Shown: piece after piece, positions 1,132 through 16,497 of the stretch | Layout: the number at the start of each line of letters is the position of its first letter | How positions within the stretch are numbered: the stretch's first letter is position 1 | From: a virus | Strand: one strand, 5' to 3' | Length of the DNA: 64,000 nucleotides | IMG/VR virus record: IMGVR_UViG_3300020442_000008 | Location: 62,001-126,000 of that record | Notes under the pieces: generated by a model | Told to the model about the DNA's origin: nothing | Databases searched by the model: none | What the model saw: the letters and a program-made list of their open reading frames with translations, nothing else | Program-made: the position numbers and the translations under genes

Positions 1132-1160
1132 TTGACTTTCGGGGCAAATTAAAATAGGAT
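1132..1160 (+). promoter_or_regulatory. sigma70-like early promoter
   Basis: TTGACT 1132-1137, 17-nt spacer, TAGGAT 1155-1160; 9 nt to the ATG at 1170, giving a leader of about 3 nt. Confidence 0.65.
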
Positions 1161-1169
1161 ATATATATT

Positions 1170-1580
1170 ATGGGATTAGATCAATACGCTTATAGCAAAG
1201 ATTCAAAAGGAGAAGAGGTAGAACTCGCTTATTGGAGAAAGCACAATCGCCTACAAGGATGGATGGAAGAACTTTGGGAAGCTAAAGGCAGACCAAACTA
1301 CAAACCAACCAATAATGGGGGTCTAGGAGACTTTAATTGCGTGAATCTCTATTTAAGCTTGGAAGACCTTGACGATCTTGAAGAAGTCGTTTGTGCGAAA
1401 GCTTTACCCGAAACTTGCGGATTCTTCTTTGGTGAGGATTCTTTCTCTTGGGAAAATAAAGATGGAGAACAACATAAAGGTTATGATTATTTCTACAAGG
1501 AACTAGATATGGAATTCATAGAAAAAGCTAGAGATGAAATTAATAAAGGAAAAAAAGTATTCTATACTTGTTGGTGGTAA
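1170..1580 (+). CDS. conserved phage hypothetical protein (MGLDQYAY family)
   Basis: 136 residues beginning MGLDQYAY, with LAYWRKHNRLQGWM, a LEDLDDLE acidic stretch, GFFFG and a C-terminal FYTCWW. This architecture recurs as a small conserved protein in many marine phages and is sometimes mislabelled as phosphoglycerate kinase; no enzymatic motif supports that. Function unknown. It has its own near-leaderless promoter. Confidence 0.75.
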   Translation: MGLDQYAYSKDSKGEEVELAYWRKHNRLQGWMEELWEAKGRPNYKPTNNGGLGDFNCVNLYLSLEDLDDLEEVVCAKALPETCGFFFGEDSFSWENKDGEQHKGYDYFYKELDMEFIEKARDEINKGKKVFYTCWW

Positions 1581-1582
1581 AT

Positions 1583-1690
1583 ATGTATTCAATAAATATA
1601 ATAGAATTAATAAATAATATATTTATAGGATTAGGTTTGACGGCACTTTTAATATTTGTTTTATTTTTAGCATTTACTTATGATGACTAA
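1583..1690 (+). CDS. small single-span membrane protein, 35 aa
   Basis: Too short for standard gene calling. The ATG lies 2 nt after the preceding stop with GGTGG upstream. Residues about 12-32 form one hydrophobic segment (IFIGLGLTALLIFVLFLAF) ending in acidic TYDD. It overlaps the next ATG by 11 nt, which supports a translated frame. Function unknown. Confidence 0.5.
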   Translation: MYSINIIELINNIFIGLGLTALLIFVLFLAFTYDD

Positions 1691-1892
1691 AAACAAAGAA
1701 AGAGAATTACTAGATAATATATATAATATAGAGAACGAATTAAAGATAATTGAAAAAGAATTGGATTACATAATCGACAATGCTCCCGAAGATGGGGCAG
1801 TCGCAGAACTCCTAGAGATCGAGCGAGGATACCTTTTGTCGGAACTTGAGATCACCAAGGATTCTTATATGTTACTTACCAAAGATAAATAA
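1680..1892 (+). CDS. hypothetical coiled-coil protein, 70 aa
   Basis: Two adjacent ATGs (1680, 1683) are possible starts. The product is highly charged and predicted helical with heptad-like spacing (IENELKIIEKELDYII). Not recognised. Likely the third gene of the 1170 unit. Confidence 0.6.
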   Translation: MMTKNKERELLDNIYNIENELKIIEKELDYIIDNAPEDGAVAELLEIERGYLLSELEITKDSYMLLTKDK

Positions 1893-2114
1893 CTAAATTC
1901 TATATACAATATATATATAAGACTAATATAACAACAAATAACACACTTATTATATTACTTGATTTATTTTAAGTTAATGAATATTATTAATTTATATATA
2001 AATGCTTGTGAATCAAGGGTATTCAGAGTGGGGGAAAGTGGGGAAAAGTGGTTCAGAGTGGGCTACGCGACTTCAATATATATAAATACTAATACAAATA
2101 TATTCAAATAACAA
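1893..2114. other. AT-rich intergenic stretch with a repeated GAGTGGG motif
   Basis: Mostly AT-rich. At 2023-2065 a G-rich patch contains TTCAGAGTGGG twice and GTGGGG twice, standing out from the surroundings. No gene, terminator or clear hairpin seen. Confidence 0.4.
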
Positions 2115-2294
2115 ATGAAATTAAACAAAATAAACAAAATTCTAAATAATATTAATTTGAAATTGCTTGAAATTAAACTTAAAAATAATTTTAATAGTAA
2201 AAATATATCTAATAATTGCGAAATGAAAATTGATAATGAAAATGATTCAAATATAAAACGAAATAAATACGGATTTCCAACTTTATTCAGATAA
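2115..2294 (+). CDS. possible small lysine/asparagine-rich protein, 59 aa
   Basis: An ATG-initiated frame (MKLNKINKILNNINLKLLEI...) ending KYGFPTLFR. Extreme Lys/Asn/Ile content follows the AT-rich base composition, so it may be chance. The less biased C-terminus and the fit between neighbours favour a real small gene. Not recognised. Confidence 0.35.
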   Translation: MKLNKINKILNNINLKLLEIKLKNNFNSKNISNNCEMKIDNENDSNIKRNKYGFPTLFR

Positions 2295-2360
2295 TACTGC
2301 TCTTTTTAATATATTTTAATTGATTAATATATATTAATTGGCTCGTTCGCAAGTTTTCGG

Positions 2361-2389
2361 TTGACAAAAGGTCGTTTTTCGTCAATACT
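2361..2389 (+). promoter_or_regulatory. sigma70-like early promoter, leaderless
   Basis: TTGACA 2361-2366, 17 nt, AATACT 2384-2389; exactly 6 nt to the ATG at 2396, placing +1 on the A of AUG. Confidence 0.7.
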
Positions 2390-2395
2390 ACTAAC

Positions 2396-2638
2396 ATGAA
2401 CATCAAAGAACGCAGTTTGAAGTATGTAGAATTCCATATGTTCGAGACTTTCGGTCATGTATTCGAGCATCAGCTTCAAACCCAAGGGTATTGGCATCAA
2501 GATGGTAACGATATACGATATGAGAGTGTGGTCGAGAACGCAAAGGGCGAAGAGGGCAACCAAATCAGCTACATCTTCCCCATATTTGACCCCGACAATG
2601 AATTTTATGACAAATATAATAAAGATGAGGATGAATGA
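2396..2638 (+). CDS. hypothetical protein, 80 aa
   Basis: Not recognised. Soluble, aromatic- and histidine-rich N-terminal half (YVEFHMFETFGHVFEHQL) and a very acidic C-terminus. It is the first gene of a leaderless unit and overlaps the next ATG by 4 nt. Confidence 0.65.
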   Translation: MNIKERSLKYVEFHMFETFGHVFEHQLQTQGYWHQDGNDIRYESVVENAKGEEGNQISYIFPIFDPDNEFYDKYNKDEDE

Positions 2639-2844
2639 TGAGTGAATTAACACGAAATATAAATGCTTTGTTAGATGAATATAATAATATTAAACAAAAT
2701 AAATCAAATACAGACGACACTATTGAAAATATAATTAGTGATATAAATAAATTAACTAATAATGGTCGAAATGTTAGTGATATATTTACAAATATATATT
2801 ATATAAACGATAATATGGAAGATAAGCGTTGTGCAGTTAGCTGA
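2635..2844 (+). CDS. hypothetical protein, 69 aa
   Basis: Not recognised. ATGA overlap with the preceding gene (start 2635 or 2638). Asn/Ile/Asp-rich and probably helical. Confidence 0.5.
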   Translation: MMSELTRNINALLDEYNNIKQNKSNTDDTIENIISDINKLTNNGRNVSDIFTNIYYINDNMEDKRCAVS

Positions 2845-3058
2845 AGATCAGATTGCAAGTGAGATTTTGGCAAATAAACACAATGCCACTAATATTGATC
2901 TTTATAAACTAGAAATAATTGATAAAACAATTAATGAAATTATATTGATTTATGAAAATAAAAATATAAATGATTTAATCGAAATTATGAATGGTTTTGA
3001 CCTCAATAAATATAGTAGAAGATTGACTGGAACTGATATGTATTTGTGGGAAACTTAA
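2831..3058 (+). CDS. hypothetical protein, 75 aa
   Basis: Not recognised. GTG start inside the end of the previous frame (14-nt overlap). Predicted helical, ending in a tryptophan-containing tail (TDMYLWET). Confidence 0.5.
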   Translation: MQLAEDQIASEILANKHNATNIDLYKLEIIDKTINEIILIYENKNINDLIEIMNGFDLNKYSRRLTGTDMYLWET

Positions 3059-3197
3059 TATTGCATTATATATCAAGCAATAAACGAAATTAAGATTGAA
3101 TTTGAGCCAAATAAGATTATATCTCACCTTTATGCCTTATATATCAAGCAGTTATGTCGATAAAATGAAAAAAAATCGACATTTCAAAAAAAAAGTG
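3059..3197. repeat. intergenic stretch with a direct repeat
   Basis: TTATATATCAAGCA occurs at about 3066 and again at about 3138, 72 nt apart. No gene seen. Could be a protein-binding site pair. Confidence 0.4.
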
Positions 3198-3226
3198 TTG
3201 ACAAGGGCGACATATTTTGCGATACT
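3198..3226 (+). promoter_or_regulatory. sigma70-like early promoter, leaderless
   Basis: TTGACA 3198-3203, 17 nt, GATACT 3221-3226; 6 nt to the ATG at 3233. Confidence 0.7.
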
Positions 3227-3232
3227 TAAACC

Positions 3233-3478: not shown

Positions 3479-3504
3479 ATAATAACACTAATATAAATAT
3501 AATT

Positions 3505-3878: not shown

Positions 3879-3892
3879 ATATATAGTATTAT
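3864..3892 (+). promoter_or_regulatory. sigma70-like promoter of the noncoding RNA
   Basis: TTGACA 3864-3869, 17 nt, TATTAT 3887-3892. No start codon follows at the usual 6 nt; the next 400 bases are noncoding, so this promoter appears to drive an RNA gene. Confidence 0.65.
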
Positions 3893-3898
3893 TAATAC

Positions 3899-4300
3899 AT
3901 AACAATTGAGAAAGAAACTCAATCAAATAAAATATAATTGATCTTTAACATTTTTTTAACACTTTGGAAGGGCTTATAATCCTTCCTGTGGGTGACTGAA
4001 TAAGCCTGTCGTGAGCGGGCTAAAGTACGCAGACTTCCTGTGGTGGGAGTGCAGAGTCCAATCGGATGAGCAAAAGATGTAGACCTTGTCTAGTCTGTGG
4101 TTTGAAGTAGGTACACCATTGAACTGATGTTCACGCCGAAAAAATGGAGGTATTCAGTAGTCCTCCCCCACATCTATTTACATAGGCAAATATGCGGAGG
4201 TTGTGTGTTGCCTCTAGTGACTATCATCGCCTGTTGGGTAACTCAATAAAAGCCTAGCAAACTCTAAAAACCCTCATCTTTCGAGATGGGGGTTTTTTTT
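3899..4300 (+). ncRNA. candidate structured noncoding RNA, about 400 nt
   Basis: Bounded by a promoter (3864-3892) and an intrinsic terminator (4269-4300), with no open frame of note and clearly higher G+C than its surroundings. Visible helices: GGAAGG 3966-3971 with CCTTCC 3981-3986; AGCCTG with CGGGCT (4003-4021); ACTTCC with GGGAGT (about 4033-4050); GGAGG with CCTCC (4146-4166); GAGG with CCTC around 4197-4214; and a long-range AGATGT (4075-4080) to ACATCT (4169-4174). The tmRNA peptide tag, the RNase P signature and group I core elements were looked for and not seen. Function unknown. Confidence 0.65.
4269..4300 (+). terminator. rho-independent terminator
   Basis: AACCCTCATCT / AGATGGGGGTT stem with a TTCG loop followed by eight T. 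Ends the candidate noncoding RNA. Confidence 0.85.
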
Positions 4301-4302
4301 GT

Positions 4303-4337: not shown

Positions 4338-4595
4338 ATGATTACATTAAAAAACATACTATCACACTACGGGTACATCAACTCAGATCAACTCGCAGAA
4401 CTTAACGAACACTTCCCTCACATGAAGGTGGTAATTAAATGGGGTGGACTTCCTCGTGAACGAGTCCCTGTTTGGAAGGCAATAGAAACCATCGAGAGAG
4501 TCGAGAGGGAGAACATTGACTATTGCAGAGAGGTATTTCTCTCGGCAACCGATTGCGAGAATCTTCGCAAAGCTTTACATATAGCCACTAATTAA
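4338..4595 (+). CDS. hypothetical protein, 85 aa
   Basis: Not recognised. The start at 4338 (MITLKNIL) was chosen over the in-frame ATG-like start at 4299 because the promoter's -10 ends 6 nt before it. The fold looks alpha/beta with an IERVERENIDY helix. Confidence 0.65.
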   Translation: MITLKNILSHYGYINSDQLAELNEHFPHMKVVIKWGGLPRERVPVWKAIETIERVERENIDYCREVFLSATDCENLRKALHIATN

Positions 4596-4603: not shown

Positions 4604-4849
4604 ATGAAGTATCAAGCAGAACGAAATGCAGTTGAGTTTGGTTTATTGGATATTGAAGATAGAATACATGACAATGACCATAGACTAGACTTCGCTCAAA
4701 AACAAGAGATTCAAGGTAGAACAGACTTAATCAGATTACTATTGAAAAGAAATCTACCATTGAAAGCTAAACAACAATTAAAATTCTTAGATAGATATAT
4801 TGATCAATGCTTATATAATGATTATATGATACATGATTATTTATCTTGA
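4604..4849 (+). CDS. hypothetical helical protein, 81 aa
   Basis: Not recognised. Predicted all-helical, basic in the middle (LLLKRNLPLKAKQQLKFLDR). Its TGA stop is embedded in the next promoter's -35 (TTGACC). Confidence 0.6.
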   Translation: MKYQAERNAVEFGLLDIEDRIHDNDHRLDFAQKQEIQGRTDLIRLLLKRNLPLKAKQQLKFLDRYIDQCLYNDYMIHDYLS

Positions 4850-4874
4850 CCTTTATTCTAAACTTAACTAGTAT
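4846..4874 (+). promoter_or_regulatory. sigma70-like early promoter, leaderless
   Basis: TTGACC 4846-4851, 17 nt, TAGTAT 4869-4874; 6 nt to the ATG at 4881. Confidence 0.7.
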
Positions 4875-4880
4875 TATACT

Positions 4881-5462
4881 ATGATAAATCCACTAGAAGT
4901 AACTAACTACAATCGTTCTCAATCCGAACTACAGGAGTTCCTGTTGTTTTGCATCAATGTCGCAGGTAAGAAATCTGCTGTCGAAGCACCCAAGCTAGAA
5001 GTATTCCTGCAGAGGGTAAGAGACCTCACGAAGTCGGACTCACCATTTGAAGGACTCAGGATACTCCAGAAAGAAGGGAACCTGCAGTCCATCATGCATT
5101 GGGCAGCAATCAGTCCATACAGGCAGCGTTACAACAGTTACCAAGATGTTCTATCCCTAGGCAACCTGCGTTCAGTAACACTTCCAAGACTCATGAAGGT
5201 TCGAGGCGTTGGGCTTAAAACTGCACGATTCTTCCTTTCGCATTCTCGTGAAGACTTCGACGAACCAATGCTGGACACACACATTCTACAGTTCCTGAGA
5301 GACCAAGGATATCGTAACGCCCCGAAGAGCACCCCACAAAACGAAGGTATTTATAATTATTACGCAAATGTCTTCAAGATGTTTGCTCGGACACTTGGTC
5401 AATCTGTAACCGACTTAGACTTGACCATCTGGAAACAGTACTCACAAACCACAAACAACTAA
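4881..5462 (+). CDS. HhH-GPD DNA glycosylase/lyase-like protein
   Basis: 193 residues. The helix-hairpin-helix loop RGVGLKTARFFL (about residues 105-118) followed by LDTHILQFL, with the Asp at about residue 132, matches the HhH-GPD base-excision superfamily (EndoIII, Ogg, AGOG), where a conserved Asp after the hairpin is catalytic. The usual catalytic Lys of bifunctional enzymes falls in the hairpin (LKTA), which would fit an Ogg/AGOG-type lyase. There is no 4Fe-4S Cys cluster. Probably acts on damaged or modified phage DNA; substrate unknown. Confidence 0.7.
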   Translation: MINPLEVTNYNRSQSELQEFLLFCINVAGKKSAVEAPKLEVFLQRVRDLTKSDSPFEGLRILQKEGNLQSIMHWAAISPYRQRYNSYQDVLSLGNLRSVTLPRLMKVRGVGLKTARFFLSHSREDFDEPMLDTHILQFLRDQGYRNAPKSTPQNEGIYNYYANVFKMFARTLGQSVTDLDLTIWKQYSQTTNN

Positions 5463-5746
5463 ATTGGAACTATTAATTATACTGGTAACAGGTATACTTA
5501 TGGGAATAAAATTAGCAATAGAAAGTTGGAAAGATTAATTGCTTAGATATATGAACTAATGAAATTCGAAATAAGTGAATCGCAAATATGAAAATATTAA
5601 ATAACAAGTCAATATATTTTAATCAGAGGGCGCCGCCCATCATACTGACTATCAAGGACTTATGAAATTTCGCCAAGTCAAAAACTTGCGTAAGTCTCCG
5701 GCAATCAAAGACTTACAACAAAAGTAATTAAAAAGCAAAAAAGGTG
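5463..5746. other. intergenic stretch holding palindromic repeat copy 1
   Basis: Contains a GGGCGCCGCCC palindrome near 5629 and repeat copy 1 (5648-5716). Two tiny frames (25 and 21 codons) overlap the repeat and are not convincing genes. Confidence 0.5.
5648..5716. repeat. dispersed palindromic element, copy 1
   Basis: Begins ACTATCAAGGACTT, contains GCGTAAGTC and ends ATCAAAGACTTAC; the GTAAGTC/GACTTAC arms pair. This copy lacks the GCCGGC core of most others but shares the outer arms. Confidence 0.55.
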
Positions 5747-5775
5747 TTGACAGGACGACATTCTTTCTCTAGTAT
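5747..5775 (+). promoter_or_regulatory. sigma70-like early promoter
   Basis: TTGACA 5747-5752, 17 nt, TAGTAT 5770-5775; 7 nt to the ATG at 5783. Confidence 0.7.
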
Positions 5776-5782
5776 AGTATAC

Positions 5783-6151
5783 ATGATGAAAAACGATATG
5801 CCTATAAACGAATTATTAAACTTCGATGATCTTGTTTTCAAGCCACATCGCCATGCCGACGGAGTTCAAGCTGTGCTTGACTTGGGAAACGATCTTTCGA
5901 TCTCTGTCGTTGCAAACAATGACGGAGGGCAAGGGTTATATGGTCAAGTCAGTGATGGTCTGTACGAAGTTGCAGTCTTTTACAAGAATGATATGATTCC
6001 TCTCTCTCCTGCAGATGATGTTGTGGGTTGGCAATCTCCTAACCAAATCTCTTATATGATGATGAAGGCTCAAGTAGAAGGGTTTTATTGGGTTGATGAG
6101 CTTAAGGATGCAAAAAGAGAGTATAGAAGAGAATTCGAGCTTGACAATTAA
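5783..6151 (+). CDS. hypothetical protein, 122 aa
   Basis: Not recognised. The start 5783 (MMKNDMPINELL) is fixed by the promoter; an upstream in-frame GTG lies inside the -35 region and is rejected. A beta-rich middle (LDLGNDLSISVVANNDGGQGLYG) and a charged helical C-terminus are visible. The pattern resembles small phage proteins of unknown function. Confidence 0.65.
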   Translation: MMKNDMPINELLNFDDLVFKPHRHADGVQAVLDLGNDLSISVVANNDGGQGLYGQVSDGLYEVAVFYKNDMIPLSPADDVVGWQSPNQISYMMMKAQVEGFYWVDELKDAKREYRREFELDN

Positions 6152-6169
6152 TTACCATTAGTATAGGAT
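6141..6169 (+). promoter_or_regulatory. sigma70-like early promoter, leaderless
   Basis: TTGACA 6141-6146 lies inside the end of the preceding gene; 17 nt; TAGGAT 6164-6169; 6 nt to the ATG at 6176. Confidence 0.65.
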
Positions 6170-6175
6170 GATATT

Positions 6176-6400
6176 ATGACAGACGCAGAATTAGTAATGC
6201 AAATCGTTAAAGGAAATCTTGCTTGGCAAGATCCAATGTCTAAGGTTTGCCTCGATCAACATGAGCGACATCCCGAAAAGTTCCCTTTGGGTAGTACCTT
6301 TCAGTCATTCGATGAAGTTTTAGACGACATCATTTTTGACTTGACATCTTTACGAGATGAGCGTAGAATAGAATCATCTTTTCAATCAGCACAACTATAA
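6176..6400 (+). CDS. hypothetical protein, 74 aa
   Basis: Not recognised. Soluble, acidic, probably helical. Leaderless, first gene of a three-gene unit. Confidence 0.6.
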   Translation: MTDAELVMQIVKGNLAWQDPMSKVCLDQHERHPEKFPLGSTFQSFDEVLDDIIFDLTSLRDERRIESSFQSAQL

Positions 6401-6636: not shown

Positions 6637-6808
6637 GAAGAATAAAGAAAAAGGCATTCCTAGCCAAGAAGCTCATTTGCACTTGCATAAAGTGGCAAAG
6701 AAATCCTCTCACACGGGCAACAAACCTCTTGTTCCACACATTAACAATCCTAATGTTATGGTTACTCAAAAGGTGAGAAAAGCCCAAGAATCGAAAAAAA
6801 ACTCTTGA
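6629..6808 (+). CDS. hypothetical basic protein, 59 aa
   Basis: MGKKNKEKGIPSQEAHLHLH..., Lys/His-rich, ending ESKKNS. The segment HLHLHKVAKKSS is plausible for nucleic-acid binding. The TGA lies inside the following promoter's -35 box (TTGACT). Not recognised. Confidence 0.55.
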   Translation: MGKKNKEKGIPSQEAHLHLHKVAKKSSHTGNKPLVPHINNPNVMVTQKVRKAQESKKNS

Positions 6809-6833
6809 CTTTTAACCCATAATTTGAGATACT
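6805..6833 (+). promoter_or_regulatory. sigma70-like early promoter, leaderless
   Basis: TTGACT 6805-6810, 17 nt, GATACT 6828-6833; 6 nt to the ATG at 6840. Confidence 0.7.
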
Positions 6834-6839
6834 TATATC

Positions 6840-7109
6840 ATGTTAGATTATATTGAAGCAAACTGCGTTTTACCGCCACTTGAAAACAAACCATCCTACA
6901 ACGAAGAATCGGGCTTATGGGAACTATACTTTGAGGAGCTTTTACCATCATGGTATGTTAGAGGTGAAGACGAACACCCCGACCTTATCACTCTCAATTT
7001 CGAGACTTGGGATCAAGTCCAAAACACTTTACTACAACTAGAACAAATCAAACATGAAAGGGACGCTTATGAAGCTACTGAGCAAGATCAAGAATCTGTT
7101 CTCTCCTAA
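6840..7109 (+). CDS. hypothetical acidic protein, 89 aa
   Basis: Not recognised. Trp-rich acidic N-terminal half (SGLWELYFEELLPSWYV) followed by a helical tail. Leaderless start. Confidence 0.65.
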   Translation: MLDYIEANCVLPPLENKPSYNEESGLWELYFEELLPSWYVRGEDEHPDLITLNFETWDQVQNTLLQLEQIKHERDAYEATEQDQESVLS

Positions 7110-9032: not shown

Positions 9033-9048
9033 TGCCCTAAGTTATTTA

Positions 9049-9110
9049 CTATCAAGGACTTCCAGGCTTGCCGGCCCAGGCAAAACTTGGCGTAAGTCTT
9101 TGATTATCAG
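9049..9110. repeat. dispersed palindromic element, copy 3
   Basis: Left arm ACTATCAAGGACTT, core TTGCCGGCCCAGGCAA, right arm GTAAGTCTTTGATTATC. The arms are imperfect inverted repeats and the core can form a hairpin. Confidence 0.65.
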
Positions 9111-9137
9111 GTGTTTGAAGCTTAAGAAAAAAAAGTG

Positions 9138-9167
9138 TTGACAGGTGCCTAGTTATAGTGTTATAGT
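9138..9167 (+). promoter_or_regulatory. sigma70-like early promoter, leaderless
   Basis: TTGACA 9138-9143, 18 nt, TATAGT 9162-9167; 6 nt to the ATG at 9174. Confidence 0.7.
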
Positions 9168-9173
9168 ATAGGT

Positions 9174-9575
9174 ATGATTAGAACAAAGACAGACTCTCGC
9201 TACGACATCGACTATGACCGTAAGGTGTTCGTATATAAAAACCTTCACAAGAATTGCTGGAGCATCCGCCAGGACGGGTTAGTCAAAGCTCATTCAGATG
9301 GTTCACCAATTTGCTTATATTCAGCAGTCATGAAAGTTAACCAAAAAGGTCGAGAGCGTGTGATTCGAGAAAAGAGTAAAAATGTTCATGCAGGTATTTT
9401 GGGTTACCTTAGATTTCCTATGATGGAAGTATGGCACGGATGGGTTGACATGATCGAGATTACATATAACCCTTACAAGTATCATTCTTTTGTAGATGTT
9501 GAAAACAAGAAGACAAGATACTTCGCAAGCTTCTGTAAACTTTATCAAGATAAAGTTTTAGTTGATCGTTATTAA
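9174..9575 (+). CDS. hypothetical protein, 133 aa
   Basis: Not recognised. Basic, with SRYDIDYDRKVFVYKNLHKN at the N-terminus and CWSIRQDG, resembling conserved small phage proteins. Leaderless. Confidence 0.65.
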   Translation: MIRTKTDSRYDIDYDRKVFVYKNLHKNCWSIRQDGLVKAHSDGSPICLYSAVMKVNQKGRERVIREKSKNVHAGILGYLRFPMMEVWHGWVDMIEITYNPYKYHSFVDVENKKTRYFASFCKLYQDKVLVDRY

Positions 9576-9578
9576 GGG

Positions 9579-9607
9579 TTGACAAGTTAATTTATTTTTA
9601 TTAGTAT
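9579..9607 (+). promoter_or_regulatory. sigma70-like early promoter, leaderless
   Basis: TTGACA 9579-9584, 17 nt, TAGTAT 9602-9607; 6 nt to the ATG at 9614. Confidence 0.7.
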
Positions 9608-9613
9608 AGTATC

Positions 9614-10354
9614 ATGATTAAAACAACACTTCTCACATCAGGTAATCAAAAAATTCTCAAAGGAGAAAAAATGGGTTACATCACGAAAGGCATCCACCTT
9701 GCCCCTGCCAATCTTGCGGGCTATGAAGTTTGCCAATGGCGTTCCAAAGGATGCACTGCTTCTTGTCTCAACACGGCTGGTCGTGGGCAAATGAACTCTG
9801 TTCAGCAGTCACGCATTGCCAAGACAAAGCTATTCTTCGAGCAACGCAAAGATTTCATGATTAAGCTTTGCAAAGAAATTGCTTCGACCATTAAGTCGGC
9901 AAGCAAGAAAGAGATGAAAGCAGTTTTCCGTCTCAATCTCACAAGTGACATTAAATGGGAGGATGTTTACATGAAAGATCCAAACTATAACATTTTTGAA
10001 TACTTTTGTGCAGAACAATTCTACGACTACACAAAGTCATTTAAGAGAATGTGTGCTTATCTTGGCAAGCCATTCACCAAAGATGAAGCAAAGTTTCCGT
10101 CCAATTATCATCTAACTTTTTCTCGTTCAGAACACAACGATAAGAAGTGTGAAATGGTTCTTGCTATGGGTGGCAATGTTGCCGTGGTGTTTCGCAATCA
10201 ATTACCAAAGACTTGGAAAGGTTACGAAGTTGTTAATGGTGATGAAACTGATTTGCGTTTCCTTGACAAAAAAGGTGTTGTCGTTGGGCTTATCGAAAAA
10301 GGTATGGCAAAGAAAGATGAGACAGGATTCGTGCAAGAAGGTATTGACTCTTAA
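9614..10354 (+). CDS. GP88-like cysteine-motif phage protein
   Basis: 246 residues. The motif CQWRSKGCTASCLNTAGRGQ (about residues 41-60), followed by QQSRIAKTKLFFEQRKDFM, matches the GP88 family first seen in mycobacteriophages: three closely spaced Cys, then C-L-x-x-A-GRG and a basic helix. Function of the family is unknown; the Cys cluster could bind a metal or iron-sulfur centre. The family is widespread in phages of unrelated hosts. Confidence 0.65.
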   Translation: MIKTTLLTSGNQKILKGEKMGYITKGIHLAPANLAGYEVCQWRSKGCTASCLNTAGRGQMNSVQQSRIAKTKLFFEQRKDFMIKLCKEIASTIKSASKKEMKAVFRLNLTSDIKWEDVYMKDPNYNIFEYFCAEQFYDYTKSFKRMCAYLGKPFTKDEAKFPSNYHLTFSRSEHNDKKCEMVLAMGGNVAVVFRNQLPKTWKGYEVVNGDETDLRFLDKKGVVVGLIEKGMAKKDETGFVQEGIDS

Positions 10355-10371
10355 TTGCAATTTGATATAAT
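10344..10371 (+). promoter_or_regulatory. sigma70-like early promoter, leaderless
   Basis: TTGACT 10344-10349 inside the end of the preceding gene, 16 nt, consensus TATAAT 10366-10371; 6 nt to the ATG at 10378. Confidence 0.75.
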
Positions 10372-10377
10372 TATAGT

Positions 10378-10587
10378 ATGAGAAAAACAAAATTCATATT
10401 GACTTTATCAAACGACAAAATTCCAATCATTGCAGAAGTTTGTGCTTTAAGAGTTTTAGAGAATGATGAAAAAGTATTAGGCAAAGCTTGCGTGGAAGCA
10501 AACATTAAGTCAAAAAACTTCATAGACATAACAAGAAAAGCCAACTATAAAGAAGGAAAGTTATATGCTCATGCGGATTATGTATAA
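10378..10587 (+). CDS. hypothetical protein, 69 aa
   Basis: Not recognised. Mixed alpha/beta, basic C-terminus. Last gene of the rightward early block before the convergent junction. Confidence 0.6.
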   Translation: MRKTKFILTLSNDKIPIIAEVCALRVLENDEKVLGKACVEANIKSKNFIDITRKANYKEGKLYAHADYV

Positions 10588-10660: not shown

Positions 10661-10703
10661 ATTCCATAACCTTTTCATTATCAATGACTTATGGGATTTT
10701 TTT
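10661..10703 (+). terminator. terminator at the convergent junction
   Basis: ATTCCATAA (10661-10669) pairs with TTATGGGAT (10689-10697), followed by a T run. It overlaps palindromic repeat copy 4. Confidence 0.6.
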
Positions 10704-10747
10704 GCTAGGCCAGGGTTTGCGTAAGTCTCCGACAATCAAGGACTTAC
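10676..10747. repeat. dispersed palindromic element, copy 4
   Basis: Left arm ATTATCAATGACTTA, core TAGGCCAGGGTTTGCG, right arm TAAGTCTCCGACAATCAAGG. Lies between the two converging gene blocks. Confidence 0.6.
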
Positions 10748-10748
10748 A

Positions 10749-10916
10749 TCACGAGAAAAAAGGATGCTTGACCACTGAAGACATCGGGACACAAACCCGC
10801 CTCTGTGAGCGGTAGACCCTCGCAAGGACGAAGGTCTCGGCTCCGTCTTTGTAAGTGCCCTCGACATGGAGGATTCGCTTTTTATAGTCTACCACGACAT
10901 CATTTTTTTTAATCAT
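10749..10916 (-). CDS. hypothetical basic beta-rich protein, 55 aa
   Basis: Too short for standard calling. MIKKNDVVVDYKKRILHVEG... with VLARVYRSQRRVCVPM looks like a small beta barrel. It is the last gene of the 11236 unit, 14 nt after the preceding stop. Its higher G+C than its surroundings also suggests coding. Confidence 0.6.
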   Translation of the reverse strand: MIKKNDVVVDYKKRILHVEGTYKDGAETFVLARVYRSQRRVCVPMSSVVKHPFFS

Positions 10917-11659: not shown

Positions 11660-11710
11660 GAAAAATCTTTAACTATTTTTTTGCACAATTCTCCTAGCGT
11701 AAGTTGTTCT

Positions 11711-11768
11711 TTACCAAAGACTTCCGGCATAGCCGGCAGGGGCGACCGGCGCCCTAAGTCTTTGATGG
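11711..11768. repeat. dispersed palindromic element, copy 5
   Basis: Left arm TTACCAAAGACTT, core AGCCGGCAGGGGCGACCGGC, right arm CCTAAGTCTTTGATGG. It lies directly 3' of the 11777-12085 gene on the - strand. The core is nearly identical to copies 7 and 8. Confidence 0.7.
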
Positions 11769-12471: not shown

Positions 12472-12744
12472 TTATCTCCAACTTTTTAGAGAAAAATTTG
12501 TCTGATGTGCCGAGACGGGCAAACCTTGCGTTGGCAAGTCTTTTGCGAAGTCATCAAAAAAGGCAACCGCTTCCGATAGCTCGTCAGCGTGGATTTGCTC
12601 CTCAAGCTTTTTCAACTCGTCCTGTGCATGGCTGAGATGCAACGCCCGAATGGAACGCAAGGATTCCTTGCGAGAGCGGTTGAGTTTGTCTTGCCAAAAG
12701 GCAATTTCCTTTTGGAGCTTTTCTATCTTTTCAATTTTATTCAT
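12472..12744 (-). CDS. hypothetical coiled-coil protein, 90 aa
   Basis: MNKIEKIEKLQKEIAFWQDK and a second helix rich in Glu form a coiled coil. The start at 12744 (6 nt from the -10) is preferred to an in-frame TTG at 12762. Not recognised. Confidence 0.65.
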   Translation of the reverse strand: MNKIEKIEKLQKEIAFWQDKLNRSRKESLRSIRALHLSHAQDELKKLEEQIHADELSEAVAFFDDFAKDLPTQGLPVSAHQTNFSLKSWR

Positions 12745-12750
12745 GCCTAC

Positions 12751-12779
12751 AATATATCTCAAAAAGGTTGGGAAGTCAA
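12751..12779 (-). promoter_or_regulatory. sigma70-like early promoter, leaderless
   Basis: TTGACT at 12774-12779, 17 nt, TATATT at 12751-12756; 6 nt to the ATG at 12744. Confidence 0.7.
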
Positions 12780-13002: not shown

Positions 13003-13040
13003 GCCTAAAATTAAACTATTTTTTTGCACGATTCTGCTGT

Positions 13041-13115
13041 CGTAAGTCATTGTTAGTTAGAGACTTCCGGCGCAGCCGGCCTGGCCGGCCAGGCCCGCAA
13101 GTCCTTGGCTAACAA
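13041..13115. repeat. dispersed palindromic element, copy 6
   Basis: Left arm GTTAGTTAGAGACTT, core with GCCGGCCTGGCCGGCC, right arm GCAAGTCCTTGGCTAACAAAG. Directly 3' of the 13120-13302 gene. Confidence 0.7.
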
Positions 13116-13304: not shown

Positions 13305-13502
13305 TTAGTTTAACTCGTTAAAGTAGTTTTCTTCAATGATTTCTGTACCGATAAACTCACGGCATCGAGATAGGTCTTGCTCTAAGTAGTACCGAACGGC
13401 TTTGGCTACAATTTGATTATCTTCCTTGTAGGGAAGTTCGTCTTTTACTCTCGCCACTATGGCGTCAATCCACTTTGGCACGATGTCTTTTTCAATTTTC
13501 AT
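13305..13502 (-). CDS. hypothetical protein, 65 aa
   Basis: Not recognised. Helical, mixed charge (RYYLEQDLSRCREFIGTEII). A weak promoter (TTGCAA 13532-13537, TAAAAT 13510-13515, 7 nt to ATG) precedes it. Confidence 0.6.
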   Translation of the reverse strand: MKIEKDIVPKWIDAIVARVKDELPYKEDNQIVAKAVRYYLEQDLSRCREFIGTEIIEENYFNELN

Positions 13503-13509
13503 GAGTATG

Positions 13510-13537
13510 ATTTTAGTAATTTTTGAGCCGATTGCAA
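13510..13537 (-). promoter_or_regulatory. weak sigma70-like promoter
   Basis: TTGCAA at 13532-13537, 16 nt, TAAAAT at 13510-13515; 7 nt to the ATG at 13502. Confidence 0.45.
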
Positions 13538-13571
13538 GATTTTTTTTCGTTTTAGTTAAGTTTTTTTTGGT

Positions 13572-13690
13572 TATCTGCGGGGAGCCAAGTCCCGCCGTTT
13601 ACGGCTCTTAGTTTGGGATTTTCATTTTCATATCTGCGGGGAGCCAAGTCCCGCCGTTTACGGCTCTTAGTTGGGAATTTTCTTAATCAT
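13572..13690 (-). repeat. tandem duplication of a mini-ORF plus hairpin element
   Basis: About 42 nt are repeated almost exactly at 13572-13617 and 13631-13674 (period 59). Each copy holds GCCGTAAACGGC and GAGCC/GGCTC arms that can form nested or alternative hairpins, and each is preceded on the - strand by a 7-codon frame: MIKKIPN-stop (13667-13690) and MKMKIPN-stop (13608-13631). The first ATG lies exactly 6 nt from a promoter -10. Confidence 0.65.
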
Positions 13691-13696
13691 ACCTAT

Positions 13697-13725
13697 AACA
13701 TAGCACAGAAACTCAGAAAAGTCAA
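13697..13725 (-). promoter_or_regulatory. sigma70-like promoter of the mini-ORF element
   Basis: TTGACT at 13720-13725, 17 nt, TATGTT at 13697-13702; 6 nt to the ATG of the 7-codon frame at 13690. Confidence 0.65.
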
Positions 13726-13796
13726 GAAAAATCTTTAACTATTTTTTCAGATTTGTGTCGTAACTCTTTGAACTGGAGCGACTTGCGACAGATTTT

Positions 13797-13835
13797 CGGG
13801 GGGCGACCGGCGCCCTAAGTCTTTGATTACCAAGG
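13797..13835. repeat. dispersed palindromic element, copy 7 (partial)
   Basis: GGGGCGACCGGCGCCCTAAG followed by TCTTTGATTACCAAGG. The left arm is missing; it overlaps the end of the 28-aa gene. Confidence 0.6.
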
Positions 13836-13913
13836 CTTTTCGTCTTCTTTCATATCTTGCCACATGAGATAGAAAACTACAAGCCAAGGAGAGAATAGGA
13901 TAATTTCGATCAT
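13827..13913 (-). CDS. small membrane protein, 28 aa
   Basis: MIEIILFSPWLVVFYLMWQD followed by MKEDEKPW: a single membrane-type segment with a charged tail. Follows the 13918-14136 gene by 4 nt. Modest support because of its size. Confidence 0.45.
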   Translation of the reverse strand: MIEIILFSPWLVVFYLMWQDMKEDEKPW

Positions 13914-13917
13914 AATG

Positions 13918-14136
13918 TTATTTTTTGCGTTGTTCGTGCAGTATGGTCTGAAGCTTTTTTCGGGCTTCTTGGACTGCGTGGAGAGCGTCGAGGATCGCGA
14001 TGCCTTGCGTGATGCTCAAGGTTTGGTCTCCTTCGGTGTTGGTTGACCCAGCAAGAAAGTTGAGATTGCCTTCTGCTTTAGAGAGAGCAAGTCCGAGATC
14101 CAACTCGGGAAAATCCATTTTGCTTGATTCGTTCAT
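13918..14136 (-). CDS. hypothetical protein, 72 aa
   Basis: Not recognised. Two helices (LALSKAEGNLNFLAG and ILDALHAVQEARKKL). Its start overlaps the preceding gene by 4 nt (ATGA). The segment KAEGNLNFLAG echoes LASANGNLKFLRS in the 11015-11236 protein, so the two may be paralogues. Confidence 0.6.
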   Translation of the reverse strand: MNESSKMDFPELDLGLALSKAEGNLNFLAGSTNTEGDQTLSITQGIAILDALHAVQEARKKLQTILHEQRKK

Positions 14137-14249
14137 GCTACTGATTTCGTTTTGATTGTTTGGTGTTCGCTTTTTAAAGCTTTGGTGATCTTGCTCATGG
14201 CAAGGGCGTTTAAACTAATTTGTTTTAAGAATGTTTCAATCTTTATCAT
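14133..14249 (-). CDS. small basic protein, 38 aa
   Basis: MIKIETFLKQISLNALAMSK, then a Lys/Thr-rich tail. Leaderless (6 nt from -10), coupled to the next gene by ATGA. Not recognised. Confidence 0.55.
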   Translation of the reverse strand: MIKIETFLKQISLNALAMSKITKALKSEHQTIKTKSVA

Positions 14250-14255
14250 ATTACT

Positions 14256-14284
14256 AATCTATAAAAGTTTTGGGCAAAAGTCAA
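14256..14284 (-). promoter_or_regulatory. sigma70-like early promoter, leaderless
   Basis: TTGACT at 14279-14284, 17 nt, TAGATT at 14256-14261; 6 nt to the ATG at 14249. Confidence 0.7.
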
Positions 14285-14296
14285 GTTTTTTTTAAA

Positions 14297-14572
14297 TTAT
14301 TTTTCCCATATTTGGTTGATGTAAAAAACGGCTTGATCTCCTTCTTTTGGAAACATTCCCCTTTGAAGTTGCACTTTTGTTTGCAACTTGCGAACCATAG
14401 CAAAAAACTTGCGTCTAGCTTCAGGCTTGTCTTCAGCTTCAACGGAGAGAATGTTGTTTGTCATGTGCGTATCAACAAAGGAATTTGTGTTTGTGTTCCA
14501 TAAAGGAAGCTTTTCCTTGCTATCAATGGAAGAGACATGAATGTTTGCAGTGAATGTTTTATTTTTAATCAT
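14297..14572 (-). CDS. hypothetical protein, 91 aa
   Basis: Not recognised. Beta-rich N-terminus (KTFTANIHVSSIDSKEKLPL), helical basic middle (EARRKFFAMVRKLQTKVQL). Leaderless. Confidence 0.65.
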   Translation of the reverse strand: MIKNKTFTANIHVSSIDSKEKLPLWNTNTNSFVDTHMTNNILSVEAEDKPEARRKFFAMVRKLQTKVQLQRGMFPKEGDQAVFYINQIWEK

Positions 14573-14578
14573 GTATAT

Positions 14579-14607
14579 AATTTAAAGGATTTCTTTGTAA
14601 AAGTCAA
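14579..14607 (-). promoter_or_regulatory. sigma70-like early promoter, leaderless
   Basis: TTGACT at 14602-14607, 17 nt, TAAATT at 14579-14584; 6 nt to the ATG at 14572. Confidence 0.7.
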
Positions 14608-14619
14608 ACTTTTTTTTAA

Positions 14620-14766
14620 TTATTTTACAGCTTGTTTGATCATTTCAAAAGTCCAAACGTGACCTCCTGGGCATTCCCAAAGGTCGAAAGCCTCGGACAT
14701 CGGGCTTGCTTGGATACGCTGAAGACCATTTTCTTCAATGAATTTTTGTATTTCTTTAGTTAACAT
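14620..14766 (-). CDS. small protein, 48 aa
   Basis: MLTKEIQKFIEENGLQRIQA, then AFDLWECPGGHVWTF. Too short for standard calling but preceded by a near-consensus promoter. The CPGGHVW segment hints at a metal or structural turn. Not recognised. Confidence 0.55.
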   Translation of the reverse strand: MLTKEIQKFIEENGLQRIQASPMSEAFDLWECPGGHVWTFEMIKQAVK

Positions 14767-14773
14767 ATTTTCT

Positions 14774-14801
14774 ATTATAAGGATTTAAGGTTTAAAGTCA
14801 A
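14774..14801 (-). promoter_or_regulatory. sigma70-like early promoter
   Basis: TTGACT at 14796-14801, 16 nt, consensus TATAAT at 14774-14779; 7 nt to the ATG at 14766. Confidence 0.7.
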
Positions 14802-15022
14802 GCGTTTCTTTCAACGGATCTCCAACCATAACGAGCGACTTCGTCATTATAGCGAGCTTCGGGAAGCCTTGATTTTAGGCTTTTGATATTGGCGAGAATC
14901 ATCTCGCGAGTGTGACCTGTGGCGGGCACGAAGCCTTTACCACTTTCGTAGTGATGTTTTTCGAGGCTAGACTCGAGCATTTGAATGTCGAACTTTATTG
15001 ATTCTGTTTCTGTCATTTTCAT
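14798..15022 (-). CDS. hypothetical helical protein, 74 aa
   Basis: Not recognised. Helical hairpin pattern; GHTREMILANIKSLKSRLPE then RYGWRSVERNA. Its stop lies in the downstream promoter's -35 region. Confidence 0.65.
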   Translation of the reverse strand: MKMTETESIKFDIQMLESSLEKHHYESGKGFVPATGHTREMILANIKSLKSRLPEARYNDEVARYGWRSVERNA

Positions 15023-15028
15023 ATTTAC

Positions 15029-15057
15029 AATCTACTATATTTTTACTAAAAAGTCAA
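15029..15057 (-). promoter_or_regulatory. sigma70-like early promoter, leaderless
   Basis: TTGACT at 15052-15057, 17 nt, TAGATT at 15029-15034; 6 nt to the ATG at 15022. Confidence 0.7.
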
Positions 15058-15065
15058 GCTTTATT

Positions 15066-15239
15066 TTACTTTTTTTTACTTATTCTTGCACCTGTGGTGA
15101 TGGTGTTTGGAAGTTCTTTTTTAAGCCTTTCAGCTATTTGCATAGCTTGGGCGTGTGTCCTTGCGTTGTCTACTAGCACATCATTAACTAGCACATTAAA
15201 CCATTCTGAGAAGTTAGCATTTCGTATTATCTTAATCAT
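15066..15239 (-). CDS. small basic protein, 57 aa, paralogue of 12273-12431
   Basis: MIKIIRNANFSEWFNVLVND, then VLVDNARTHAQAMQIAERLK. The NFSxWF and VDNAxTHAxAM motifs are shared with the 52-aa protein at 12273-12431. Leaderless. Function unknown. Confidence 0.65.
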   Translation of the reverse strand: MIKIIRNANFSEWFNVLVNDVLVDNARTHAQAMQIAERLKKELPNTITTGARISKKK

Positions 15240-15245
15240 ACTAAC

Positions 15246-15274
15246 AACATAGCACTATATGGGGCAAAAGTCAA
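15246..15274 (-). promoter_or_regulatory. sigma70-like early promoter, leaderless
   Basis: TTGACT at 15269-15274, 17 nt, TATGTT at 15246-15251; 6 nt to the ATG at 15239. Confidence 0.7.
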
Positions 15275-15319
15275 GTATTATTTTACTTTTTTTTTATTTT
15301 TTTTCTATTATAACTTACT

Positions 15320-15387
15320 GATTATTAAAGACTTACAGCATAGCCGGCAGGGGCGGCCGGCGCCCTAAGTCATTGGCTATTAAGGGT
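15320..15387. repeat. dispersed palindromic element, copy 8
   Basis: Left arm GATTATTAAAGACTTA, core AGCCGGCAGGGGCGGCCGGC, right arm CCTAAGTCATTGGCTATTAA. Immediately 3' of the 15388-15612 gene on the - strand. Confidence 0.7.
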
Positions 15388-15612
15388 TTAGAACTCGTCC
15401 ATCAAGAACTCGTCAAGTGCATAGGTGTCTAGGTCGGGGTCTTGGTAGCTTGCACCATCAGGTGTGTTGTATGTGCCCGATTCTACTAGATGATTGGCTA
15501 GATCTTTGTATTGCACAAAACGCCTAGCGAGTTTATATAAACTCTCGTCGTTGCCTAACCATAGGGCAACATTCCATGTTGCCCAATTTGCCCAGCCGTT
15601 GTAATCGCTCAT
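15388..15612 (-). CDS. DUF7249-like small phage protein, 74 aa
   Basis: MSDYNGWANWATWNVALWLG at the N-terminus is the NGWxNxxTWNVxLWL pattern of a small protein family common in phages and plasmids (DUF7249-like). The start at 15612, 4 nt after the preceding stop, was chosen over an upstream in-frame ATG that overlaps the previous gene. Acidic C-terminus. Function unknown. Confidence 0.7.
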   Translation of the reverse strand: MSDYNGWANWATWNVALWLGNDESLYKLARRFVQYKDLANHLVESGTYNTPDGASYQDPDLDTYALDEFLMDEF

Positions 15613-15616
15613 GGTC

Positions 15617-15778
15617 TTATGCGTTAGGGTTGACAGCGAAAAGCCCATAACGACGCGAGCCGTCATTGTGCTTCATGCGAGAGCGTAGGAGACGCTCAGC
15701 GTCACGCCTCCGCAACGCTATGGATTCGACTTGCCAAACGGCGCCCGCTTGGTTGAGGATAGACTTAAGGATGTACAT
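15617..15778 (-). CDS. small arginine-rich protein, 53 aa
   Basis: MYILKSILNQAGAVWQVESI, then Arg-rich, ending RRYGLFAVNPNA. AGAAAGG lies about 6 nt before the ATG, so this operon-internal gene has a Shine-Dalgarno site. Higher G+C than its surroundings. Not recognised. Confidence 0.6.
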   Translation of the reverse strand: MYILKSILNQAGAVWQVESIALRRRDAERLLRSRMKHNDGSRRYGLFAVNPNA

Positions 15779-15799
15779 GTTAACCTTTCTGTTGAGGGT

Positions 15800-16096
15800 T
15801 TAGGATTCAAAAATTTCACGCATTGCACCGCTCACGCAGTCCATGTCAACGAGGTTCTCGTCGTTGTCGAAGTCGTCGTCTTCTTGTGCTTCGACTGCAT
15901 CAAGAGAAACGAATTCGTCTTCGATGTCACGCTCGGATGCGTGTTGCACTCCATGTTCAAGGGTAAACTCTTCGTTTGCGATTTGCTCCTGTATGTCAGC
16001 GAGCAAGTCAGCGAATTGACCTGTGACTTTGTTGTTGTTCGCTTCAGCGAGTTCAACGGCTTTACGGATTGCTTCGATATTATTTTCGTTATTCAT
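15800..16096 (-). CDS. hypothetical acidic protein, 98 aa
   Basis: Helical N-terminal half (EAIRKAVELAEANNNKV) and a strongly acidic C-terminus (AQEDDDFDNDENLVDMD). Such acidic small proteins can act as DNA mimics, but that is speculation here. Start 16096 is preferred to 16132 because of the promoter. Confidence 0.65.
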   Translation of the reverse strand: MNNENNIEAIRKAVELAEANNNKVTGQFADLLADIQEQIANEEFTLEHGVQHASERDIEDEFVSLDAVEAQEDDDFDNDENLVDMDCVSGAMREIFES

Positions 16097-16104
16097 AGTT
16101 ATGT

Positions 16105-16132
16105 ATATTAAGGATTTTTTGAAGAATTGCAA
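16105..16132 (-). promoter_or_regulatory. sigma70-like early promoter
   Basis: TTGCAA at 16127-16132, 16 nt, TAATAT at 16105-16110; 8 nt to the ATG at 16096. Confidence 0.55.
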
Positions 16133-16142
16133 GAAAAAAGTT

Positions 16143-16253
16143 TCAGCAAAAGCACTTTTTTTTGTGCTTCGCTTTGCGTGGAAGCACTTTGTTTTTAAGC
16201 TTGTGAGGTCTTGCCTTGGTGAAGACCATTGGAATTCGTACTTTTACTTTCAT
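16143..16253 (-). CDS. small very basic protein, 36 aa
   Basis: MKVKVRIPMVFTKARPHKLK, then a Lys/His-rich tail ending CFC. Leaderless. Possibly a nucleic-acid-binding peptide; not recognised. Confidence 0.5.
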   Translation of the reverse strand: MKVKVRIPMVFTKARPHKLKNKVLPRKAKHKKKCFC

Positions 16254-16259
16254 GATTAT

Positions 16260-16287
16260 ATTCTAAGGATTTAAGGTGTGGAGTCAA
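16260..16287 (-). promoter_or_regulatory. sigma70-like early promoter, leaderless
   Basis: TTGACT at 16282-16287, 16 nt, TAGAAT at 16260-16265; 6 nt to the ATG at 16253. Confidence 0.7.
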
Positions 16288-16293
16288 GCTTTA

Positions 16294-16485
16294 TTATGCA
16301 ACCCACTCCACAAGCTCAAACTTGCGAGGCAAGCCAAACTTTGCAAGATCTTTGTTGAGATCTTCGACGGATGCGTGGTGTTCGCATTTCATCATGACAT
16401 TACGCTGTACGATCTCGCCGCTCTTGCGGTCAATGATGTTGACCTTGGCGATGAAACCATTTACTTGTTTATCATTTTTTATCAT
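16294..16485 (-). CDS. hypothetical protein, 63 aa
   Basis: MIKNDKQVNGFIAKVNIIDR, beta-rich then helical (SVEDLNKDLAKFGLP). Start 16485 (6 nt from an extended -10) is preferred to the TTG-type extension at 16545 that would run through the promoter. First gene of the leftward early block. Confidence 0.6.
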   Translation of the reverse strand: MIKNDKQVNGFIAKVNIIDRKSGEIVQRNVMMKCEHHASVEDLNKDLAKFGLPRKFELVEWVA

Positions 16486-16491
16486 ACCTAT

Positions 16492-16497
16492 AACATA
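16492..16497 (-). promoter_or_regulatory. extended -10 promoter, leaderless
   Basis: TATGTT at 16492-16497 preceded by TGC (extended -10); the -35 is poor. 6 nt to the ATG at 16485. Confidence 0.5.

What the first reader, a model, noticed from the sequence alone, without database searches (positions are those of the whole stretch)
1132..16497. An array of leaderless early genes: -10 box exactly 6 nt before the ATG
More than 20 early units, on both strands, show TTGAC(A/T), a 16-18 nt spacer, TAnnnT-type -10 and then exactly 6 nt to the start codon (e.g. 2396, 3233, 4338, 4881, 6176, 6840, 9174, 9614, 10378; reverse 11236, 11624, 12744, 12967, 14249, 14572, 15022, 15239, 16253). With the usual -10 to +1 distance, transcription would begin at the A of AUG, so mRNAs lack a 5' UTR and a Shine-Dalgarno site. 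Downstream genes inside operons do carry purine-rich sites, and head genes have full leaders. A phage whose whole early program is leaderless is, as far as I know, unusual. It could exploit intact 70S or non-canonical initiation and resist translational control by the host.
Basis: partly seen in the sequence, partly recalled or inferred. Interest (0 to 1): 0.85.

Follow-up and report, generated by a model that had tools for sequence, protein, structure and literature searches.

The report
Phage promoters fused to start codons
In this uncultured phage group most early genes, and apparently many late ones, have their promoter placed so that RNA synthesis should begin exactly at the start codon, so the messages would carry no leader and no ribosome-binding site, and this layout is kept across distant relatives.

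Summary
In the window's first 17 kb, 17 units have TTGAC-N16-18-nAnnnT ending exactly 6 nt before ATG. In the whole 128.6-kb record, 19 of 42 strict promoters sit at 6 nt and 5 at 7; shuffles give 0. The spike is conserved in 37 related loci (163 at 6 nt, shuffles 0) and absent from unrelated phages such as T4. Three features not used for selection point to +1 = A of AUG: a pyrimidine at -1 in about 93% of k5-7 units versus 49% of operon-internal genes; almost exclusive AUG (196 ATG, 1 GTG, 0 TTG); and Shine-Dalgarno depletion. New here: late and structural units carry a second element, GTGTA, ending 9-10 nt before the start, with Y at -1 in 96% of the 9-nt class, so they are probably leaderless too. 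'Head genes have full leaders' is therefore partly wrong, and some early units do have leaders. The proposed advantage (70S initiation, escape from host control) is untested; an SD-scarce, possibly Verrucomicrobiota, host is the simpler context. Leaderless phage genes are known (phiYS40); two whole promoter classes locked to AUG is a new variant.

The parts
2361..2638 (+). early unit: TTGACA-N17-AATACT-6 nt-ATG2396, ORF 80 aa
3198..3478 (+). early unit: TTGACA-N17-GATACT-6 nt-ATG3233, ORF 81 aa
4303..4595 (+). early unit: TTGACA-N17-TACTAT-6 nt-ATG4338; 19 of 22 orthologue upstreams have k=6-7
4846..5462 (+). early unit: TTGACC-N17-TAGTAT-6 nt-ATG4881, 193 aa (phrog_11575)
5747..6151 (+). early unit: TTGACA-N17-TAGTAT-7 nt-ATG5783
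6141..6400 (+). early unit: TTGACA-N17-TAGGAT-6 nt-ATG6176
6805..7109 (+). early unit: TTGACT-N17-GATACT-6 nt-ATG6840
9138..9575 (+). early unit: TTGACA-N18-TATAGT-6 nt-ATG9174
9579..10354 (+). early unit: TTGACA-N17-TAGTAT-6 nt-ATG9614, 246 aa (phrog_1617); 18 of 24 orthologue upstreams k=6-7
10344..10587 (+). early unit: TTGACT-N16-TATAAT-6 nt-ATG10378
11015..11270 (-). early unit: TTGACT-N16-TAGAAT-6 nt-ATG11236
11529..11659 (-). early unit: TTGACT-N17-TACATT-6 nt-ATG11624, 31 aa ORF
12472..12779 (-). early unit: TTGACT-N17-TATATT-6 nt-ATG12744
14133..14284 (-). early unit: TTGACT-N17-TAGATT-6 nt-ATG14249, 38 aa ORF
14297..14607 (-). early unit: TTGACT-N17-TAAATT-6 nt-ATG14572; 8 of 11 orthologue upstreams k=6
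14620..14801 (-). early unit: TTGACT-N16-TATAAT-7 nt-ATG14766
14798..15057 (-). early unit: TTGACT-N17-TAGATT-6 nt-ATG15022
15066..15274 (-). early unit: TTGACT-N17-TATGTT-6 nt-ATG15239
16143..16287 (-). early unit: TTGACT-N16-TAGAAT-6 nt-ATG16253, 36 aa ORF
61116..61471 (-). TTGACT-N17-TATACT-6 nt-GTG61436 (the one GTG case), 106 aa, in the replication region
16729..16958 (+). late-type element GTGTA 16729-16733, 9 nt before ATG16743
17470..18341 (-). late-type element GTGTA 18337-18341, 9 nt before ATG18327
34796..35005 (-). late-type element GTGTA 35001-35005, 10 nt before ATG34990; 17 of 26 orthologue upstreams keep it at 9-11 nt
37525..38132 (+). late-type element GTGTA 37525-37529, 9 nt before ATG37539
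43733..45312 (+). late-type element GTGTA 43733-43737, 9 nt before GTG43747 (521 aa protein next to the terminase)
48177..48727 (+). late-type element GTGTA 48177-48181, 9 nt before ATG48191; 4 of 4 orthologue upstreams keep it
48714..51203 (-). late-type element GTGTA 51199-51203, 10 nt before ATG51188 (7 nt before the in-frame ATG51191) of the ClpC-like ATPase
63652..63860 (-). late-type element GTGTA 63856-63860, 9 nt before ATG63846

Best explanation
The phage uses two promoter classes whose distance to the start codon is fixed so that +1 falls on the A of AUG. Class 1 (early/replication; host sigma70-type) is cTTGAC(A/T)-N17-TAnnnT, with T at -17 and a pyrimidine at -1, 6 (5-7) nt before AUG. 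Class 2 (late/structural) is GTGTA at -14 to -10, with no -35 box and a pyrimidine at -1; it is probably read by host polymerase redirected by an unidentified phage factor. First cistrons are thus translated from leaderless mRNAs with a 5'-terminal AUG; cistrons further along an operon are translated by overlap or re-initiation and only sometimes have an SD. Shown: motif positions, excess over controls, conservation, initiator bases, coding from that ATG. Inferred: the actual transcription start, sigma usage, early/late timing, and the mode of ribosome binding. The likeliest reason is an SD-scarce host (perhaps Verrucomicrobiota), where a leader brings little.
For: Spike at 6 nt: own record 19 of 42 versus 0 in shuffles; related early-gene loci 163 of 539 versus 0. 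After clustering at <60% identity, 74 of 278 still lie at 6 nt and 33 at 7. TTGAC ends exactly 30 nt before the start in 187 of 1209 upstreams, 8.1 expected. The pattern occurs 3-20 times per related contig, 0-1 times in the reversed-pattern controls of those contigs, and 0-3 times in nine unrelated phages. Y(-1): 93% for k=6, 93% for k=7 and 96% for late k=9, versus 49% of 639 internal genes; in the own record 35 of 36 versus 26 of 76, Fisher p=2.6e-11. AUG 196, GTG 1, TTG 0 at k=6. Strong SD in 0% of leaderless units versus 7% of internal genes (30% with any SD core). Start ATG aligned in 236 of 275 homologue pairs; changes in codons 2-13 fall 220/107/358 on codon positions 1/2/3, and -35 and -1 bases are conserved while the spacer varies. 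Early 5' ends are A-rich and weakly folded. GTGTA ends 9-10 nt before the start in 16 genes versus 1.8 expected, with 83 in the genome versus about 274 by base composition, and 65 + 39 in terminase-linked loci versus 4.9 each. The same TANNNT geometry, 6-7 bp before ORFs, was shown experimentally to give leaderless mRNA in Deinococcus radiodurans (PMC12340547).
Against: No transcript data exist for this phage. About 30% of strict promoters lie at other distances (k=10-59 or no ATG), so a minority of units have leaders. k=8-9 units could have 1-3-nt leaders. The late k=10 class shows no pyrimidine preference at -1 (50%), so its start may not be the A of AUG. No late sigma or gp55 homologue was found. 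Host unknown: MAG hits disagree, and no -10 spike was seen in small samples of Verrucomicrobiota-class genomes.
Confidence: 0.85

Rival explanations
1. The leaderless layout merely mirrors the host: the host itself expresses many genes from -10 boxes next to AUG, and the phage copies that habit. Nothing is phage-specific.
For: Operon-internal phage genes use SD only weakly. Sampled Verrucomicrobiota-class genomes have few SD cores (9-21% of ORFs). SD-scarce Verrucomicrobia are reported (PMC10783764). A PVC-type protein is encoded by the phage.
Against: In the sampled Verrucomicrobiota-class genomes no TAnnnT excess appears at 6-7 nt, and whole-MAG pattern counts per megabase are far below the phages'. 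Samples are small and the host is not established.
Confidence: 0.4
2. Transcription starts a few bases off the AUG (very short leaders or starts within the codon), so mRNAs are near-leaderless rather than leaderless and ribosomes need other signals.
For: k varies from 5 to 9; the k=8-9 classes and the late k=10 class have weaker or no Y(-1) preference.
Against: k=5, 6 and 7 and late k=9 all show 93-96% Y immediately before the A of AUG, the initiator expected if +1 is that A.
Confidence: 0.12
3. The conserved ATG is part of the promoter's initiation region and not the start codon; translation begins at a later ATG.
For: Several ORFs are short (31-48 aa) and some have further in-frame ATGs.
Against: 31 of 34 leaderless ORFs have homologues, the ATG is kept at the aligned first residue in 236 of 275, and substitutions in codons 2-13 prefer third positions. 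A pure initiator would not need ATG rather than GTG/TTG.
Confidence: 0.04
4. Chance: AT-rich DNA gives -10-like hexamers everywhere near ATG.
For: The genome is AT-rich and single -10-like hexamers are common.
Against: Joint -35/-10/ATG geometry is absent from shuffles, reversed-pattern controls and unrelated phages.
Confidence: 0.01

Closest known systems
Thermus thermophilus phage phiYS40 leaderless middle/late mRNAs (reviewed in PMC3594737; original Sevostyanova et al. 2007 not held)
   Same: A phage that expresses whole temporal classes from mRNAs without leader or SD.
   Different: In phiYS40 most middle/late mRNAs are leaderless; here the sigma70-type (early) class is leaderless as well as a separate GTGTA late class. 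No transcript mapping exists here, and IF2/IF3 changes are unknown.
'-10 region adjacent to ORF' expression in Deinococcus-Thermus (PMC12340547)
   Same: TANNNT about 6-7 bp before the ORF, experimentally shown to start leaderless mRNAs.
   Different: There it is a cellular phylum trait (about 30% of ORFs), often without a -35; here it is a phage trait with a near-consensus -35 and 17-nt spacer.
T4-type late promoters (TATAAATA, gp55/gp33/gp45-dependent)
   Same: A single -10-like element, no -35, in front of structural genes; GTGTA at -14 to -10 overlaps the T4 element's usual position if +1 is the A of AUG (T4 position from own knowledge).
   Different: Sequence GTGTA rather than TATAAATA; locked to AUG; no gp55 or gp45 homologue found by profile search.
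Single leaderless phage genes such as lambda cI (own knowledge; cited in PMC12340547)
   Same: Promoter whose +1 is the AUG.
   Different: Isolated gene versus dozens of units in two classes conserved across a phage group.

Membership tests
Leaderless genes / -10-adjacent ORF expression | TAnnnT -10 box 5-7 nt before the start codon | tested here: met
Leaderless genes / -10-adjacent ORF expression | Initiator (Y-1 R+1) at the AUG | tested here: met
   93-96% Y(-1) versus 49% in internal genes
Leaderless genes / -10-adjacent ORF expression | No Shine-Dalgarno; AUG start strongly preferred | tested here: met
Leaderless genes / -10-adjacent ORF expression | Mapped 5' end at the AUG | not testable with these tools
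   no transcriptome available
sigma70-dependent promoters | TTGACA / 17 nt / TATAAT | tested here: met
   logo of 245 promoters: N17 dominant, C-36, T-17
T4-type late promoters | single -10-like element, no -35 conservation | tested here: met
   late logos show no conserved position upstream of GTGTA
T4-type late promoters | TATAAATA consensus | tested here: not met
   GTGTA followed by A/T-rich, non-conserved bases
T4-type late promoters | gp55 late sigma and gp45 clamp encoded | tested here: inconclusive
   no significant profile or hhalign match; a gp44-like clamp loader is present

The most novel reading that the evidence does not exclude
A widespread, undescribed phage group has abolished 5' UTRs for nearly all transcription-unit heads: both the host-sigma70 early promoters and a phage-specific GTGTA late promoter class are locked to the AUG, an essentially leaderless viral gene-expression programme suited to an SD-scarce (perhaps PVC) host.
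Probability: 0.5. Interest if true: 0.75.

Novelty: new variant of a known kind. Interest (0 to 1): 0.62.

Why it matters
Phage leaderless mRNA is usually discussed as isolated genes or the late genes of one Thermus phage. A whole phage group that fuses two promoter classes to start codons would be a natural system for studying leaderless initiation, would let start codons and promoters be annotated precisely in uncultured viruses (+1 = AUG), and would warn that SD-based gene callers mis-score such genomes. The GTGTA element also gives a handle for finding the late transcription factor.

Tried and rejected
Sequence lookups among annotated phages: no DNA match and only about 25% identity terminases, so the group is not represented there. 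Host assignment by MAG-binned terminases: four hits, three different named groups, inconclusive. Host by ClpC similarity: full-length homologues at 40-44% in nearly all sampled Verrucomicrobiota-class genomes, while the Halobacteriovorax class generally lacks them, although the Halobacteriovorax MAG itself had the best hit; suggestive only. Search for a T4 gp55/gp45 homologue by HMM and hhalign: nothing significant; the best hhalign candidate (record 13437-14324) had no support in the PDB and no useful relatives. -10 spike in Verrucomicrobiota-class samples: none, but samples are small. GTGTA as an SD variant was rejected because its distance, the Y(-1) signature and the lack of a G-rich core do not fit SD.
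Full report
What it is. The window is bases 62001-126000 of a 128,598-base virus record. It encodes a tailed-phage terminase, DnaB, a UvsX-like recombinase, a DNA polymerase and a ClpC-like ATPase. Loci around an early gene (L087-L123) and a clamp-loader gene (L128-L166) were also fetched. All comparisons below use these.

Checking the observation. In the first 17 kb, 17 units have the -10 box exactly 6 nt before ATG; 17 of the 18 listed positions hold and 12967 is weak. With the strict pattern TTGAC(A/T)-N16-18-TAnnnT over the whole record there are 42 promoters: 19 at 6 nt, 5 at 7, 2 at 8, 3 at 9; a dinucleotide shuffle has 11 promoters and none at 6. Relaxed to TTGAC plus nAnnnT, 28 lie at 6 and 7 at 7. 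The units extend through the 62 kb left of the window, so the array is genome-wide. Exceptions exist: 7930 (38 nt), 11466 (37 nt) and several in the left part.

Conservation. In the early-gene loci 163 of 539 promoters sit at 6 nt and 54 at 7; shuffled, none at either. After collapsing similar sequences (<60% identity), 74 of 278 clusters remain at 6 and 33 at 7. Orthologue by orthologue, the spacing is held: the 355-aa endonuclease-like gene at record 51183 has 6 nt in 15 of 18, the ligase gene 6-7 nt in 7 of 7, ATG4338 6-7 nt in 19 of 22. Unrelated large phages, T4 included, have 0-3 pattern hits in 143-490 kb.

Why +1 should be the A of AUG. The -10 box ending at -7 is the standard geometry. 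Independently, and without being selected for, the base before the ATG is a pyrimidine in 95%, 93% and 93% of units with 5, 6 and 7 nt, against 49% of 639 operon-internal genes; in this genome alone 35 of 36 against 26 of 76, p=2.6e-11. That is the initiator preference expected of a start on this A (established knowledge of sigma70 transcription). At 6 nt, ATG occurs 196 times, GTG once, TTG never, as expected if a 5'-terminal AUG is needed. Strong SD motifs are absent (0% against 7%; any core 6% against 30%). The first codons are A-rich and weakly folded. Coding starts at this ATG: 31 of 34 leaderless ORFs have homologues, 236 of 275 keep ATG at the aligned start, and differences in codons 2-13 fall 220/107/358 on codon positions 1/2/3. 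The same TANNNT geometry was shown by experiment to make leaderless mRNA in Deinococcus (PMC12340547).

A positional search of all start regions found GTGTA ending 9-10 nt before the start in 16 genes (1.8 expected), while GTGTA is rare in the genome as a whole (83 against about 274 from base composition). In terminase-linked loci it is the dominant signal: 65 at 9 nt and 39 at 10 nt against 4.9 each. It precedes long and structural-region genes (for example 43747, 37539, 48191, and the divergent pair at record 10201/10272). No -35 is conserved. For the 9-nt class the base at -1 is a pyrimidine in 96% of 134, again pointing to +1 = A of AUG; the 10-nt class lacks this (50%), so its start is less certain. 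I read this as the late promoter, by analogy with T4's single-element late promoters, but no gp55 or clamp homologue was detected, so membership is not claimed. T4 and other phage records (L167-L175) served as queries and controls.

How it most likely works. Host polymerase with its main sigma reads class 1 on entry; a phage factor later redirects it to class 2; both yield first cistrons beginning with AUG. Later cistrons in operons rely on overlap or re-initiation, with SD in a minority. Which ribosome form initiates is not addressed by sequence. The advantage is also open: the record encodes a DUF1549/DUF1553 protein, a family present 68 times in a Verrucomicrobiales MAG, once in a Halobacteriovorax MAG, and above threshold in none of 14 control genomes. 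Sampled Verrucomicrobiota-class genomes are SD-poor, and SD-scarce Verrucomicrobia are reported (PMC10783764). A host that makes little use of SD would make leaders dispensable. Host identity remains unproven.

Novelty. Leaderless phage classes are known for phiYS40 (PMC3594737) and leaderless genes in many bacteria (PMC5397173). I found no report, in the held library, of a phage with both early sigma70-type and late promoters locked to AUG. I file it as a new variant of a known kind.

Noticed in passing
window 3966-4176 (+): manA RNA (RF01745, 84 bits) lies between operons, followed near 4270-4300 by a terminator-like hairpin with a T run, just before the leaderless gene at 4338; it looks like a free-standing RNA rather than a leader of that gene.
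   Followed up: partly
L004:5533-6728 (record 45533-46728): A leaderless operon encoding a weak phosphopantetheine-attachment (acyl-carrier) match followed by a ketoacyl-synthase-like protein, unusual for a phage.
   Followed up: no
L003:16554-18824 (record 36554-38824): 756-aa protein with PSCyt2/PSD1 (DUF1549/DUF1553) domains, a family very abundant in a Verrucomicrobiales MAG; possible host marker or acquired gene.
   Followed up: partly
window 5641-5720, 9041-9116, 10700-10758, 11676-11764, 13019-13107, 13800-13839, 15287-15375: Repeated GC-rich palindromic blocks (variants of GTAAGTC...GACTTAC with CCGGC cores) between early units; possible terminators or mobile repeats.
   Followed up: no
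window 13561-13678: Two tandem 59-nt copies of a hairpin-like sequence (CGGGGAGCCAAGTCCCGCCGTTTACGGCTCT) at 88% identity.
   Followed up: no
L003:10108-11352 and nearby: Two sulfotransferase-like genes, a sugar-epimerase-like gene and a glycosyl-type gene in a cluster.
   Followed up: no
record-wide class 1 logo: T at -17 in 81% and TG-like bases at -15/-14 of early promoters, not selected for, resembling the TRTG extended -10 element.
   Followed up: no
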